This document shows, one piece after another, positions 3,001-26,860 of a stretch of DNA of 64,000 nt. Where the stretch lies: positions 5,122,001-5,186,000 of the forward strand of contig NC_022657.1 in assembly GCF_000494755.1 (NCBI RefSeq). The letters run 5' to 3'. The DNA is from Amorphoplanes friuliensis DSM 7358. GTDB lineage: Bacteria > Actinomycetota > Actinomycetes > Mycobacteriales > Micromonosporaceae. The stretch's first letter is position 1. Every line of letters starts with the position of its first letter. The position numbers and the translations under genes were made by a program. Under the pieces are notes generated by a model. The model made no database searches. It was not told where the DNA came from and saw only the letters and a program-made list of their open reading frames with translations.

Positions 3001-6000
3001 GGCAGGTACGCCGCGCCGGTCCTGAGCACACCCAGGATCGCGGGCACGGTGAGCGGGCGGGCCGTCGCCAGGGCGATCAGGTCGCCGGGGCCGGCACACC
3101 GCGCGGTGAGCACGCCGGCCAGCCGTGCCGACCAGTCGTCCAGCTCGGCGAAGGTCCACTCCCGGCCACCGGAGACGAGTGCGGTGGCCTGCGGTGTCGC
3201 CGCCACCTGGGCGGCAAAGAGGTCCACGATGGAACCGTCGGGCACCGGCAGAGTGACGACTGGTTGCTCGCGCTCGTGCGGGGCGAGGACGTCGGTCCGG
3301 CTGATGGCGGCCGAGGGGTCGGCGGCGACCGCGGTCAGGACCCGTCGGAGGCGTTCGACCAGGGTCTCGGCGGAGTTCCGGTCGTAGCGGTCGGTGGCGT
3401 ACTCGAGCTCGCCGCGGACGCCGTCACGGGTTTCGAAGAAGTCGAACGACAGGTCGAACATGGCGACGTGCTGGCGGACGCGTTCGGCCTCGACCCGCAA
3501 CGGCCCGAGGTGCCAGGTGCTGTCGGCCTCACCCAGGTAGGACACCATCGTCTGGAACAGCGGGTGCCGCCCCAGCGACCGCACCGGATTCAGCGCCTCG
3601 ACCAGGTGCTCGAACGGCACCTCCTGCCGATCGAACGCCGCCAGATCGGTCTCCCGCACCCGGGCCAGCAGCTCCCGGAAAGTCGGATCCCCCGAGGTGT
3701 CGGTCCGCAGCACCAGCGTGTTCACGAAGAACCCGACCAGGTCGTCCAGCGCCGAGTCCGGACGACCAGCGACGGGCGAGCCCAGCGGGATGTCGGTGCC
3801 CGCACCGAGCCGGGTCAGCAGCACCGCCACCGCGGCCTGAACGACCATGAACATCGACGTGCCGGTGGACCGCGCGAGACTGCGCAGCTGGGCGGTGACA
3901 TCAGCGGGAAGACCGAACTCGACCACGTCACCGTGATAGGTGGCCTCCGCCGGTCGCGGCCGGTCGGCGGGCAGCTCCAGCTCCTCCGGGAGCCCTGCGA
4001 GAGCCTCACGCCAGCCGTCGATCTGCCCGGCGAGACTGTCCGCCTCGGCGCGCTGCCACAGGGCGAAGTCCGCGTACTGCACGGGCAGCGGCGGGAAACT
4101 CGGCGCGAGACCGGCACACCGGGACGTGTACGCCGCCACGATGTCCCGGCGCAGCGGCACGTCGGACCACTCGTCACCGGCGATGTGGTGCAGCAGCAGG
4201 ACGAGCACGTGCTCGTCCGGTGCCACCCGGAGCAGCCGGGCCTGCAGCGGCGGTTCCTGGTCGAGGCGGAAGGCGTACGCGCCGAGGGCCGCCAGCCGGT
4301 CGGCGACGTCAGCCTCGGCGATGTCCTCCACCGGGATGGTCAGCGGCCCGGCCGGCAGCACCCGCTGGTACGGCTCGGTGTCCTCGGCGAAAACCGTCCG
4401 CAGCGTCTCGTGGCGCGCCACGACGTCACCGACCGCCGCGATCAGCGCGTCCCGGTCCAGGCGGCCCCGCAGCCGCCAGGCCATCGGCAGGTTGTACGTC
4501 GGGTTGGGGCCCTCCAGGCGGTAGAGGAACCACAGCCGCTGCTGGGCGTACGACAGCGGCACACGCTCGGGCCGTTCGGTGGCGACCAGCGGCGCCCGAT
4601 TGGACCCTTCGAGGCGCGGCAGCAGTGCCGCCACGGTCGGGGCGTCGAACACCGCGCGGACCGGCAGTTCCACACCGAGGACCGACCGGACGCGTCCGGC
4701 GAGACGCATGACCAGCAGCGAGTGCCCGCCGAGGGCGAAGAAGTCGTCGTCGATGCCGACCGCCGGCAGGCCCAAGACCTCACCGAAGAGGTCACACAGC
4801 TGCTGCTCACGGGTGGTCCGCGCGACGCGACCGGTGCTCAGCAGCGAGAGGTCCGGGTCGGGCAGGGCGGCGACGTCGAGCTTGCCCGCGACCGTCCGCG
4901 GCAGCGCGTCCACCTCGACGAACACCGCCGGGATCATGTAATCCGGCAGCTTGGCCCGCAGGGCGTCGACGTCGACCGGAGCGCCCACCACGTAGGCGAC
5001 CAGGCGGCCGTCGCGCACCAGCACAGCGGCCTGCCCGAGGGCGGCCTCGATCTCGCCCAGCTCGATGCGGAAGCCACGCACCTTGACCTGGCCGTCAGCG
5101 CGGCCGGCGAACTCCAGCACGCCGTCCGGCGTCCAGCGGGCCAGGTCGCCGGTGCGGTACATGCGGCTGCCCGCCGGGCCGAACGGGTCGGCCAGGAAAC
5201 GACCGGCGGTCAGGCCCGGCCGGTTCAGGTAGCCGTGGGCCAGGCCGGCGCCGGCGACGTGGAGCTCACCGAGGACACCCGGCGGGACCGGGCGCAGCGC
5301 GTTGTCGAGGACGTAGGTGCGGACGTTGTCCAGCCGGTACGCCGACCGGTCCGGCCCGTGCCAGCCGTACGCGTCCACCGATGCTTCCGTCGGGCCGTAC
5401 AGGTCGTGGCAGACGAGGCCCTCGACCGCGCAGATCTGCTGCCACAACTGCGGATCGATGGCCTCACCACCGACCAGCAGCACCCGCAGACCGGCCTCGA
5501 GCACGCCCGCCGGGACCAGCTCACGCAGGTAGGTCGGCGTCACGTCGAGGACCTCGACGTGCTGCTCGCTCAGGTAGCCGACCAGCGCCCGCGCATCGCG
5601 GTAGACGTCCGCGTCGACGACGTGCAGCGTGTGGCCGCCGAGCAGCCACAACAGCGGCTCCCACGACCCGTCGAACGTGAACGACGCGACATGGGCCACC
5701 CGCCGTACCGGACCCGGCATGAGCCGTTTCTGATGGCCGGCAAAGAGATTCACGATGCCCCGGTGCGGGACGACCACACCCTTCGGGCGTCCCGTCGACC
5801 CGGACGTGTAGATCACGTACGCCGGCGACTCCGGATCGATCGCCCGGGTGAATGGCATTCCATCCGGCGTGTCCGGGCCGACCGTGATCCGGGCGCCGGT
5901 CCACGGCACGTCGACACCGCCGACGGTGATCAGCAGTGCCGGGGCGGCGTCGTCGAGCATCCCGGCGATCCGGTCGGCCGGCTGTTCCAGGTCGAGCGGC

Positions 6001-25479: not shown

Positions 25480-25644
25480 ATGAATGAGCTGCTAGTAGCC
25501 GGCCCAGCCCTCGCCGGCGGGTATCTGGCCCTGACCGGCACGGTTGCGCTCATCGCCTCGGCGCACCCGGATGAGAAGCGCCGCCGGGATGCGGCGCGCA
25601 TCCTCGACAGGCTGTTGCGGGTCCGGCAGCGTGACCGGCCGTGA
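25480..25644 (+). CDS. Small predicted membrane protein, 54 residues
   Basis: The ATG at 25480 follows a GAGG about ten bases upstream and opens a 55-codon frame. The product has one hydrophobic segment (PALAGGYLALTGTVALIAS, residues 9-27) followed by a basic tail rich in Arg and Asp. A strong hairpin begins 13 bases after the stop. I recall similar short one-helix proteins annotated as hypothetical in other actinomycetes, without a function. It stands next to the tRNA-like cluster, and the pair may be a relic of a mobile or plasmid-like segment; that is speculation. Confidence 0.45.
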   Translation: MNELLVAGPALAGGYLALTGTVALIASAHPDEKRRRDAARILDRLLRVRQRDRP

Positions 25645-25656
25645 GGAAATGGCGAA

Positions 25657-25683
25657 GCCCGGGGATATGGCCAATCCCCGGGC
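25657..25683 (+). terminator. Hairpin terminator after the small ORF
   Basis: A nine-base-pair perfect stem, GCCCGGGGA and TCCCCGGGC, separated by a nine-base loop, starts 13 bases after the stop at 25644. There is no clear U tract, as is common for actinobacterial terminators, and it may also work on the minus strand. Confidence 0.6.
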
Positions 25684-25729
25684 CTCTGTTTACCACTGAA
25701 TTGCACACACCAGCACGTTTAAGGGCCTG

Positions 25730-25774
25730 GATCATTCTTCATGACATCGGGTTTTGCCTTTAAACTACCGCCGC
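25730..25774 (-). other. tRNA-like 5' half (acceptor and D arm only)
   Basis: On the minus strand GCGGCGG is followed by TA and a D-arm-like hairpin (GTTT, loop AAAGGCA with the usual GG, AAAC). After that the anticodon region degenerates and I find no matching T arm or 3' acceptor strand downstream. GCGGCGG also pairs perfectly with the 3' acceptor strand of the element at 25782-25918, across a seven-base loop. I read it as a decayed or partial tRNA gene. Confidence 0.35.
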
Positions 25775-25781
25775 TCGAAGC

Positions 25782-25918
25782 GCGGCGGACCGGACTTGAA
25801 CCGGCATCCGCTGTCTCTGTCCGTACCCGGTCGATCCGGTGATCAGTGGTGAATGCTGACATTGGAGCGAGAGTCTGAGTCTGAGACCGGCTGCCTCTGC
25901 CAGTTGGGCTACCCCCGC
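25782..25918 (-). tRNA. Degenerate tRNA-like element with an expanded anticodon region
   Basis: The 5' part looks like a real tRNA (GCGGGGGTAGCCCAACTGG, then the second half of the D arm). The 3' part has a clear T arm (GCCGG, TTCAAGT, CCGGT) and a 3' strand CCGCCGC that pairs with GCGGGGG at six of seven positions. The total is 137 bases, about 60 more than normal. The extra lies in the anticodon region, where CCGGT and ACCGG could form a stem closing a loop of about 44 bases with a duplicated TCAGAC. It could be one disrupted gene, two truncated tRNAs joined, or a structured non-tRNA RNA. No CCA is encoded. Confidence 0.45.
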
Positions 25919-25926
25919 GTGGTTGA

Positions 25927-26018
25927 TGCGGGGGGCGGGACTCGAACCCGCACTGGGACCGGTGGATTCAGCTTGAGCTTCAGCTGTCAGCTTCACGCCG
26001 TTGCCGGCGCACCCCCGC
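25927..26018 (-). tRNA. tRNA-like element with intact acceptor, D and T arms but aberrant anticodon arm
   Basis: The acceptor strands GCGGGGG and CCCCCGC pair perfectly. The D stem CGCC/GGCG with loop GGCAAC and the T arm GCGGG-TTCGAGT-CCCGC are canonical. Between them lie about 44 bases made of AGCTGA-like repeats instead of a normal anticodon stem with U33, so no anticodon can be assigned. The length is 92 bases with the discriminator A. The neighbouring element has the same acceptor sequence, which suggests duplication. Confidence 0.5.
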
Positions 26019-26043
26019 GCTCCCACGGGGGAATCAGTGACGG

Positions 26044-26775
26044 TTACCCGAAGAGGTAACCGAAGACGGCCGCGCCGACCCGCTGGTCGGCGACCTCGGT
26101 GTTGTTGGCCTCCTCGCGCGCGAACTTGACCGCGGTCTGCAGGGCCAGGACCCGCTCGAGGATCTCGTTGACGCGCTTGGCCGGCAGCGCACCGGAGAAC
26201 TTCACCGTGGTCCAGTATCCGACCGTGATGTCCTCGTAGTACACCTCGACCTGCGCCGGGTGTTTGTCGGTCGCCTCGGCCTTGACGTGGTTGCGGGGCA
26301 CCTTCTTGGTGCGGTTGGTCCGCACCGGCTCGGTGCGCCAGCTGTCGGTGGAGTCGTCGCGGACCCACGACTCGGCCGCGTCGAGGACCGGCAGCTTCTT
26401 GACGAAGGTGTGCAGGTCGACGAGCTGCTTCTCGAGGAAGAGCAGGTAGGTCACCGGCACCTGCGTGGCGATGGTGCGGCCGTCGACGGTCACGTCGGCG
26501 CGGGCCACGCAGTTCGTCCAGTCCTTCGTCGCGGTGACGTCGAAGAGCCGCGTCAGCGTGCCGGCGACCTCCCGCAGGATGTCCTCAGCCTTGATCTGCA
26601 CACGCGTCGACTCGGCGGGGAGCTGCTCACCCTCCTCGTCCTTGGGCTGGTACGCCCGGGAGATACCCGCGAGCGGCCCGGTCTTCTGCACGGCGTGATG
26701 CGCCTCGCTCAGGTCGGCGAACGCCTTGCTCTTGACGCCCTTCTCCACGGCGATGATCTGGTTGAGTTTCGACAC
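26044..26775 (-). CDS. Conserved hypothetical protein
   Basis: A 243-residue soluble protein that I do not link to a known function. The GTG start at 26775 has AGGGG nine bases upstream and gives SKLNQIIAVEKGVKSKAFADL; a longer reading would be poorly supported. It is rich in charged residues, with a lysine/threonine-rich middle and a helical C-terminus (LPAKRVNEILERVLALQTAVK). I have seen this type annotated as a DUF protein in actinomycetes. It ends 25 bases before the tRNA-like cluster and is divergent from the gene at 26861. Confidence 0.7.
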   Translation of the reverse strand: MSKLNQIIAVEKGVKSKAFADLSEAHHAVQKTGPLAGISRAYQPKDEEGEQLPAESTRVQIKAEDILREVAGTLTRLFDVTATKDWTNCVARADVTVDGRTIATQVPVTYLLFLEKQLVDLHTFVKKLPVLDAAESWVRDDSTDSWRTEPVRTNRTKKVPRNHVKAEATDKHPAQVEVYYEDITVGYWTTVKFSGALPAKRVNEILERVLALQTAVKFAREEANNTEVADQRVGAAVFGYLFG

Positions 26776-26860
26776 GGTGGCCCCTTTCAACGCGGGGAAA
26801 CCTAGCACTCCATCGATCATCGTTCCGACCGGTTTTCCTGCCGCCGCCTACACTCCGGCC

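What the first reader, a model, noticed from the sequence alone, without database searches (positions are those of the whole stretch)
25730..26018. Cluster of aberrant tRNA-like elements with repeat-expanded anticodon regions
At least two minus-strand elements keep acceptor, D and T arms, yet the anticodon arm is replaced by AGCTGA-type repeats in one and by a TCAGAC duplication plus a roughly 44-base loop in the other. A third keeps only the 5' half. The shared GCGGGGG acceptor suggests duplication. They might be decayed tRNAs of a mobile element, attachment-site debris or a family of tRNA-shaped RNAs with another role.
Basis: partly seen in the sequence, partly recalled or inferred. Interest (0 to 1): 0.62.

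Follow-up and report, generated by a model that had tools for sequence, protein, structure and literature searches.

The report
Phage-borne RNA carrying inside-out tRNA modules
What looked like broken tRNA genes is one large, well-conserved RNA that carries two inside-out copies of the tRNA shape without an anticodon; it is paired with a protein of unknown function and shared between soil bacteria and many phages, so it points to a tRNA-mimicking machine that we did not find described.

Summary
The tRNA-like pieces are real but are not broken tRNAs. Window 25654-26031 (minus strand) encodes one structured RNA of about 380 nt, just after the stop codon of a DUF7873 gene (26044-26775). It holds two circularly permuted tRNA modules: T arm, acceptor hairpin, D arm, with the anticodon stem opening into the rest of the RNA. 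Elbow nucleotides are invariant, stems covary strongly, and there is no anticodon loop.

The pair recurs in other Actinoplanes, Streptomyces and related genera, and in phages of actinobacteria, cyanobacteria, Rhizobium, Vibrio and Klebsiella, in many of them beside tRNA genes. In 150 Streptomyces genomes the 70 with the protein are exactly the 70 with the RNA.

The same topology is known from bacterial Y RNA (YrlA), but the Ro60/TROVE partner and the Y-RNA motif are missing; the same genome has a separate Ro60-like gene with its own Y RNA. Best explanation: DUF7873 and this RNA form a tRNA-mimicking RNP whose modules dock on a tRNA-binding protein, as tether or decoy. Structure, conservation and linkage are shown; RNP formation and docking are inferred.

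The parts
26044..26775 (-). DUF7873 protein gene (GTG start at 26775 preferred; the longest ORF begins at 26820), upstream partner of the RNA
   Evidence: PF25283 388.7 bits, E 1.6e-116, cut-off 27; start by comparison with relatives
25654..26031 (-). whole structured RNA, about 378 nt, from the first hairpin after the DUF7873 stop codon to the terminal hairpin (5' and 3' ends not mapped)
   Evidence: stretch 25640-26060 conserved at 83-92% identity in 14 other same-genus genomes; consensus structure with covariation
26012..26031 (-). first GC-rich hairpin CCCCCGUGGGAGCGCGGGGG
   Evidence: helix 1; coordinates
25995..26010 (-). second small hairpin
   Evidence: RNAalifold on Actinoplanes; coordinates
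25967..25993 (-).
   Evidence: helices 2-4
25935..25951 (-). module 1 T arm
   Evidence: helix 6, 100% paired; T loop TTCRA in 40 of 40
25912..25934 (-). module 1 acceptor stem closed as a hairpin (3' strand first)
   Evidence: helix 7, 280 of 280 cells paired
25893..25911 (-). module 1 UA linker and D arm
   Evidence: helix 8; GG in the D loop 40 of 40
25852..25884 (-).
   Evidence: helices 2-4
25819..25851 (-). 5' strands of the helices that close domain 2 and the conserved AUCGACC stretch
   Evidence: helices 9-11
25789..25805 (-). module 2 T arm
   Evidence: helix 13, 99.5% paired
25768..25788 (-). module 2 acceptor stem closed as a hairpin
   Evidence: helix 14, 279 of 280 cells paired
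   Evidence: helix 15
25691..25725 (-). conserved CUUAAACG stretch and 3' strands of the domain 2 closing helices
   Evidence: helices 9 and 10
25654..25686 (-). terminal hairpin with conserved GGNYA loop; the terminator scan gives no match on this strand
   Evidence: helix 16; such a hairpin in 112 of 113 distinct bacterial sequences against 23 antisense

Best explanation
The locus encodes a two-part ribonucleoprotein: a DUF7873 protein and a roughly 380-nt RNA. The RNA body is the likely binding platform for DUF7873. From it project one or two circularly permuted tRNA mimics that keep the tRNA elbow (T arm, D arm, acceptor stem) but have neither an anticodon loop nor, as transcribed, an open acceptor end. 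The mimics therefore cannot decode and most likely act by being bound by a protein that recognises the tRNA elbow or acceptor, for example an RNA-decay, tRNA-processing, tRNA-modifying or tRNA-cutting enzyme, which is thereby recruited or occupied. Shown: conserved structure, permuted topology, strict genetic linkage, phage distribution. Inferred: that DUF7873 binds this RNA, that the modules dock on a tRNA-binding protein, and that recruitment (as with Y RNA and PNPase) is likelier than competition.
For: Structure: 98.0% of 3507 pair cells formed against 41-46% for slid partners, covariation score 0.398 against a mean of 0.178 in 500 shuffles, 53 of 88 pairs with changes on both sides. Permuted pairing 280/280 and 279/280 cells, linear tRNA pairing 197/280. 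Positions matching U8, G18, G19, U54, U55, C56, A58 invariant in 40 of 40 in both modules (tRNA numbering recalled). Linkage: in 150 genomes of the genus taken as Streptomyces DUF7873 is in 70 and strong RNA-model hits are in the same 70; in 60 relatives the 16 genomes with full DUF7873 are the 16 with RNA-model hits better than 1e-10. Phages: 73 of 50,697 phage records hold DUF7873; model R1, built from bacterial loci only, hits 68 of 80 viral contig loci at E <= 0.001, 61 of them over its full length. The same permuted topology is reported for YrlA, whose domain binds PNPase and whose stem binds Rsr (passages of PMC8394870; of PMC11472068). Modularity: by a simple pattern module 1 is absent, with a short spacer in its place, in 15 of the 103 bacterial loci that could be judged (137 examined, 34 not scorable); a plain hairpin is seen there by eye in L062, L072 and L128. 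DUF7873 has several invariant lysines, weak support for nucleic-acid binding.
Against: No transcript, complex or phenotype was observed. Nothing shows which protein the modules bind. No neighbour is shared by all bacterial loci within 2.5 kb (best cluster 17 of 80), so context does not point to a pathway. ACCA or NCCA follows the acceptor strand in part of the modules, which leaves open that RNase P or other processing opens the acceptor end. Phage loci diverge enough that R1 misses 12 of 80. Tandem tRNA genes also score with the module part of R1, so module-only hits in tRNA-rich phages are weaker evidence.
Confidence: 0.6

Rival explanations
1. Decoy: the permuted modules compete with real tRNAs for tRNA-targeting nucleases of host defence or of rival elements; lacking an anticodon loop they cannot be cut there, so they trap the enzyme and protect the tRNAs of phage or cell. 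DUF7873 stabilises the RNA.
For: Position beside phage tRNA genes: annotated tRNAs in 9 of the 13 phage stretches read, not counting the Klebsiella 'tRNA-Stop', and 3 or more ARAGORN tRNAs in 9 of 24 IMG/VR loci. Hughes et al. 2020 propose competitive inhibition of an anticodon nuclease for the YrlA domain (passage of PMC7790460). tRNA-targeting defences and phage tRNAs that evade them are described in PMC10264068 and PMC11555353 (search listing and abstract starts only).
Against: Single copies in 70 of 150 Streptomyces, with neighbours shared within groups of loci, suggest a host use too. No PADLOC match for DUF7873. No ARAGORN tRNA within the fetched stretch in 13 of 24 IMG/VR loci. In 2 of the 9 phage stretches, TM16 and Y1_11, the only tRNA is the one inside the RNA region.
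Confidence: 0.2
2. RNA-inhibited protein: DUF7873 is a toxin or enzyme kept inactive by the adjacent RNA, in the manner of a type III toxin-antitoxin pair.
For: Strict co-occurrence and adjacency of one protein and one RNA; patchy distribution.
Against: One large structured RNA, not an array of short repeats as in type III systems (recalled); DUF7873 matched no toxin or nuclease family in Pfam, NCBIfam or PADLOC; retained tRNA elbows are not needed for such a role.
Confidence: 0.08
3. A 3' UTR element that controls stability or processing of the DUF7873 mRNA through RNase P or related enzymes.
For: In most of the loci printed the RNA begins within tens of bases of the stop codon; NCCA is sometimes retained after the acceptor strand.
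Against: The RNA-model hit begins about 0.54 and 0.77 kb after the DUF7873 match in L177 and L215 (about 0.19 kb in L163), is on the opposite strand in L225 and upstream of DUF7873 in L282, so it behaves as a gene of its own there.
Confidence: 0.08
4. Decayed tRNAs or attachment-site debris.
For: Sequence similarity of module 1 to junctions of neighbouring tRNA genes in relatives, 79-84% over about 60-70 nt.
Against: Compensatory change throughout, invariant elbow positions, co-occurrence with DUF7873: strong hits in 70 of 70 genomes with it and in 0 of 80 without it.
Confidence: 0.01

Closest known systems
Bacterial Y RNA / YrlA with Ro60-like protein Rsr (TROVE); RYPER with PNPase
   Same: Circularly permuted tRNA domain (T arm, acceptor hairpin, D arm) on a helix in place of the anticodon stem; encoded beside a dedicated protein gene.
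   Different: DUF7873 in place of TROVE; no Y-RNA motif (0 of 138 distinct sequences); usually two modules; about 380 nt with a second large domain and a GGNYA terminal hairpin; found in many phages. The same genome carries a separate TROVE gene with its own Y RNA.
tmRNA with SmpB
   Same: tRNA-like domain embedded in a larger RNA (passage of PMC8394870; extended anticodon stem recalled).
   Different: Permuted order, usually two modules, closed acceptor end; adjacent partner is DUF7873. Two phage RNAs give weak beta_tmRNA matches far below gathering (24.8 and 24.1 bits against 84).
GOLLD and ROOL RNAs
   Same: Large structured RNAs that also turn up in phages and near tRNA genes (search listing and abstract starts only; tRNA link partly recalled).
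   Different: Neither is among the Rfam matches listed; this RNA has tRNA modules and a dedicated protein.
Permuted tRNA genes of algae and archaea (recalled)
   Same: 3' half encoded before the 5' half, joined through the acceptor ends.
   Different: Those mature to decoding tRNAs; here no anticodon exists.

Membership tests
Bacterial Y RNA (YrlA, RF02553) | circularly permuted tRNA-like domain | tested here: met
   two modules; pairing 280/280 and 279/280 cells; elbow positions invariant
Bacterial Y RNA (YrlA, RF02553) | Ro60/TROVE (Rsr) partner gene beside it | tested here: not met
   the adjacent gene is DUF7873; the genome's only TROVE match is at C1:2442767-2442994, far from the window at 5122001-5186000, and has its own Y RNA
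Bacterial Y RNA (YrlA, RF02553) | sequence motif shared by TROVE-linked RNAs of this genus (taken as Ro-binding, recalled) | tested here: not met
   pattern read found in 4 of 5 TROVE loci (L001/L197, L198, L200, L201; not L199) and in 0 of 167 DUF7873 RNAs, 0 of 138 distinct ones
Bacterial Y RNA (YrlA, RF02553) | Rfam gathering score 69 bits | tested here: inconclusive
   28.1 bits in the window, 31.8-37.9 in four of nine relatives; but the TROVE-linked Y RNAs of this genus also get no match at gathering, so the model is a poor test here
tRNA (RF00005) | linear cloverleaf with anticodon arm | tested here: not met
   0 ARAGORN genes; linear acceptor pairing complete in 0 of 40; no anticodon loop in the covarying structure
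tmRNA | match to the tmRNA models of ARAGORN or Rfam | tested here: not met
   no ARAGORN tmRNA in the window or 28 loci; no Rfam tmRNA match in the window at gathering; two weak beta_tmRNA matches among nine relatives, 24.8 and 24.1 bits against 84. A tag-peptide frame was not looked for
DUF7873 (PF25283) | profile match over the family cut-off | tested here: met
   388.7 bits against 27
PNPase-tethering RNP (RYPER-like function) | module binds PNPase, RNA body binds the partner protein | not testable with these tools
   needs pull-downs

The most novel reading that the evidence does not exclude
This is the founding case of a separate class of phage-spread RNP: a new protein family (DUF7873) with its own RNA family that presents one or two anticodon-less, inside-out tRNAs, carried beside phage tRNA genes across hosts of several phyla and domesticated in actinobacteria, where it works in the contest over tRNAs (recruiting, blocking or reprogramming tRNA-handling enzymes). 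It would have arisen apart from Ro60/Y RNA, perhaps from the junctions of neighbouring tRNA genes.
Probability: 0.5. Interest if true: 0.93.

Novelty: new variant of a known kind. Interest (0 to 1): 0.85.

Why it matters
Large phages carry tRNA genes whose purpose is debated, and this unit sits beside many of them unannotated, so it gives a testable handle on what phages do to tRNA metabolism. It would show that circularly permuted tRNA mimicry, described for Y RNA with Ro60, also occurs with a different partner protein. It gives DUF7873 a first functional lead, and it warns that tRNA finders can call these modules odd tRNAs.

Tried and rejected
Ordinary or decayed tRNAs, attachment-site debris: rejected by covariation and permuted pairing. 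A plain Y RNA: topology fits, partner and motif do not. Known Rfam family: none at gathering in the window; below E 0.01 in nine relatives only YrlA, tRNA, beta_tmRNA and group I intron were listed.

Fold of DUF7873: AlphaFold2 model with mean pLDDT 91.2 from 34 sequences. Foldseek gave no PDB or BFVD match at E <= 0.001 and VIA-align no Z of 8 or more (best 7.0); this does not show that the fold is new. A weak viral hit (A0A7M1RW91, phage cr118_1, E 0.042, TMq 0.45) was not followed. Sequence searches of the PDB gave only matches at E 0.089 or worse; PHROGs and PADLOC none at E 0.1.

Gene neighbours: no common partner within 2.5 kb. Promoter scan: nothing; the one terminator-like match lies on the plus strand of the terminal hairpin, with 0.8 expected by chance. 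Short R1 hits in genomes without full DUF7873 or away from it: of six places fetched five hold a TROVE gene (L197-L201) and one (L202) two neighbouring tRNA genes; the many such hits in Streptomyces were not inspected one by one. First alignment of the RNA mixed strands and was replaced. The phage hits were listed again.

Full report
WHAT IS THERE. On the minus strand, just after the stop codon of an ORF that matches DUF7873 (PF25283, 388.7 bits), lie two tRNA-like pieces at 25964-25886 and 25815-25743. ARAGORN finds no tRNA in the window and Rfam none of its families at gathering threshold, although the genome has 68 tRNA matches over the cut-off, none in the window. At relaxed threshold the best match is YrlA, the bacterial Y RNA, 28.1 bits, E 0.0011; a second YrlA match on the other piece is not significant (21.1 bits, E 0.11). 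Read as YrlA, each piece is a tRNA turned inside out: T arm, then the 3' acceptor strand, a short loop, the 5' acceptor strand, then the D arm, with the strands on both sides pairing where the anticodon stem would be.

TEST OF THE TOPOLOGY. The stretch is conserved at 83-92% in 14 other genomes of the genus. I aligned 40 bacterial RNAs. They come from 44 two-module bacterial loci left after removing near-duplicates; I left out L148, L149, L151 and L154, which looked hard to align, without testing them. RNAalifold predicts 88 pairs. Of 3507 pair cells 98.0% form a standard pair, against 41-46% when partners are slid, and 53 of 88 pairs show changes on both sides; no shuffle of 500 reaches these values. 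The structure came from the same alignment, which favours it against slid versions; the size of the double-sided change (441 cells against a mean of 129 in shuffles) is the stronger point, though relatedness of the sequences also raises it. The acceptor hairpins of the permuted reading pair in 280 of 280 and 279 of 280 cells; the linear tRNA reading pairs in 197 of 280 and is complete in none of 40. In both modules the columns that correspond to U8, G18, G19, U54, U55, C56 and A58 of tRNA do not vary in 40 of 40 (numbering recalled). So the tRNA elbow is under selection, the acceptor stem is kept by compensatory change, and the anticodon loop is absent.

MODULARITY. By the strict module scanner, of 138 distinct downstream sequences 106 have two modules, 29 one, 2 three and 1 none (on the redundant 167 loci 131, 32, 2 and 2). 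Some single-module counts are misses of the strict pattern. By another pattern module 1 is absent in 15 of 137 bacterial loci (all 15 distinct), present in 88, and 34 could not be scored. The loci without a module (L177, L178) have the RNA further downstream: R1 finds it in L177 (E 1.2e-10) and in the same two contigs as L254 and L255.

CONTROL. The scanner finds a module in 1 of 138 antisense stretches and 3 of 136 upstream stretches, and in 2 of 1670 dinucleotide shuffles. It requires pairing, so it measures presence and not covariation.

LINKAGE TO DUF7873. In 60 relatives 16 genomes have the full protein and G020 a fragment. R1, a covariance model of domain 2 built from 28 bacterial RNAs, hits better than 1e-10 in the same 16. 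In 150 genomes of genus g42 the protein is in 70, one match each, and strong R1 hits (E <= 6.7e-11) are in the same 70. I take g42 to be Streptomyces because L134 from it has the same RNA sequence as L075, named Streptomyces thermodiastaticus. Weaker, mostly module-only R1 hits bring the tally to 139 of 150 genomes; three in tandem in G451 at 78-base spacing look like neighbouring tRNA genes, but these hits were not inspected. The genome searches score only a limited number of candidates per genome with strict filters. In a class-wide sample 28 of 296 genomes have DUF7873, one (G233) only fragments; 4 of 72,556 plasmid records have it.

PHAGES. DUF7873 is in 73 of 50,697 phage records: Vibrio 29, Gordonia 12, Rhizobium 12, Klebsiella 7, Serratia 6, Arthrobacter 3, Pseudanabaena 2, Rhodococcus 1, Microcoleus 1 (many near-identical). 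I read the surroundings in 13 of the 73. Annotated tRNAs lie in 9 of the 13 stretches, five of them with five or more (Mimi, Phendrix, NiceHouse, RHph_TM21B, K477). Twelve of 13 have a module within 0.7 kb downstream by the strict or a laxer scanner without its own control, in PA-SR01 only about 600 nt after the stop codon; the Microcoleus phage has none, but an R1 hit about 2 kb away (35.1 bits). R1 itself missed 7 of the 13 (PA-SR01, RHph_TM21B, D505, Centimanus, TM16, Y1_11, K477) at E 0.01. In IMG/VR the first scan gave 26 loci and the profile scan 80, overlapping the first and partly redundant. R1, built without viral sequence, hits 68 of these 80 at E <= 0.001, 61 over its full length. 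The scanner with a slightly laxer pattern finds a module in 70 of the 79 with enough sequence (antisense 2 of 79). 76 of 80 have one or the other. The exceptions are L226, L272 and L286, where T-arm pieces are visible by eye, and L250, which ends too early. The RNA-model hit is on the opposite strand in L225 and upstream of DUF7873 in L282, so the RNA is a gene of its own. A terminal hairpin with a GGNYA loop is in 112 of 113 distinct bacterial sequences (23 antisense) and in 56 of 82 distinct viral ones (4 antisense); on the redundant sets 136 of 137 (38 antisense, 21 of 411 mono-shuffles) and 87 of 116 (6 antisense, 13 of 348). In the Vibrio and Rhizobium phages L203, L205, L208 and L209 a genuine tRNA follows the last module, before a terminal hairpin that the scan confirms in L205 but not in L203 or L209 (L208 not printed, all four by eye).

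COMPARISON WITH Y RNA. YrlA has the same circular permutation (passages of PMC11472068); its domain is modified like tRNA and binds PNPase while its stem binds Rsr (passages of PMC8394870). The genome of the window has one TROVE match. Its ORF is preceded by a Y RNA with a motif shared with three of four sister-genome loci that also hold a TROVE gene (L199 lacks the exact pattern). That motif is in 0 of 138 distinct DUF7873 RNAs. So the two systems sit in one cell and share, as far as tested, only the inside-out tRNA. The unit is not filed as a Y RNA, because two defining features were tested and not met; it may well work like one.

MECHANISM. Shown: structure, topology, linkage, distribution. 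Inferred: DUF7873 binds the RNA body (adjacency, strict co-occurrence, invariant lysines); the modules are bound by a protein that recognises the tRNA elbow or acceptor. A tether, as with Rsr and PNPase, is my first choice. A decoy against tRNA nucleases is the main rival; Hughes et al. 2020 raise it for YrlA (passage of PMC7790460), and it fits the place beside phage tRNA genes. An NCCA after the acceptor strand survives in some modules (module 1 ACCA in 6 of 14 viral and 28 of 94 bacterial, module 2 TCCA or GCCA in 7 of 16 and 13 of 117; module 2 counts not freed of duplicates), so opening of the acceptor loop by processing is possible.

NOVELTY. No paper in the searched library holds 'DUF7873', and the listings showed none that evidently describes this RNA; only top results were listed and few were opened. 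A review of jumbo phages notes TROVE proteins in a few of them (passage of PMC7824862), not this unit in the passages seen. Most subscription papers are not held, so this is not proof of absence.

LIMITS. No expression data. R1 covers only domain 2. Viral counts are partly redundant. Host statements for phages rest on record names.

Noticed in passing
L197:1683-3284 (-) and about 3244-3480 (-), genome C1:2440500-2446500: A TROVE/Ro60-like gene with a classical Y RNA just upstream in the same genome; like those in sister genomes (L198-L201, each with a TROVE match) it gets no Rfam match at gathering, so RF02553 seems to miss these actinobacterial Y RNAs.
   Followed up: partly
L204:3522-3605: In Klebsiella phage Centimanus part of the RNA is annotated as 'tRNA-Stop(tta)'; ARAGORN also calls a tRNA-Phe or tRNA-Leu inside the RNA in L064 and L101 (3267-3353), and a 'tRNA-???' next to the RNA in L047. 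Such entries may be a quick way to find more members.
   Followed up: no
L203:3597-3669, L205:3719-3789, L208:3694-3769, L209:3600-3672: In Vibrio and Rhizobium phages a genuine tRNA (Lys, Thr, Ile, Lys) follows the last permuted module, before the terminal hairpin seen by eye.
   Followed up: no
L158:2063-2591: Gordonia phage Phendrix has a tmRNA match (Rfam 89 bits) in its tRNA array where the record's table shows no feature.
   Followed up: no
L017-L023: Same-genus genomes without full DUF7873 have tRNA arrays or small clusters whose neighbouring-tRNA junctions resemble module 1 (79-84% over about 60-70 nt), a possible source of the module.
   Followed up: partly
L225:4438-4603 (-), L282:2228-2388 (+): Viral contigs where the RNA-model hit is inverted or upstream relative to DUF7873.
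   Followed up: no
L166:1689-1908: Group I intron-like match, 44.7 bits, just below the gathering score of 50, in a viral contig.
   Followed up: no
window 25541-25600 (+): Weak Guanidine-III riboswitch match, 21.3 bits against a gathering score of 36; probably chance.
   Followed up: no
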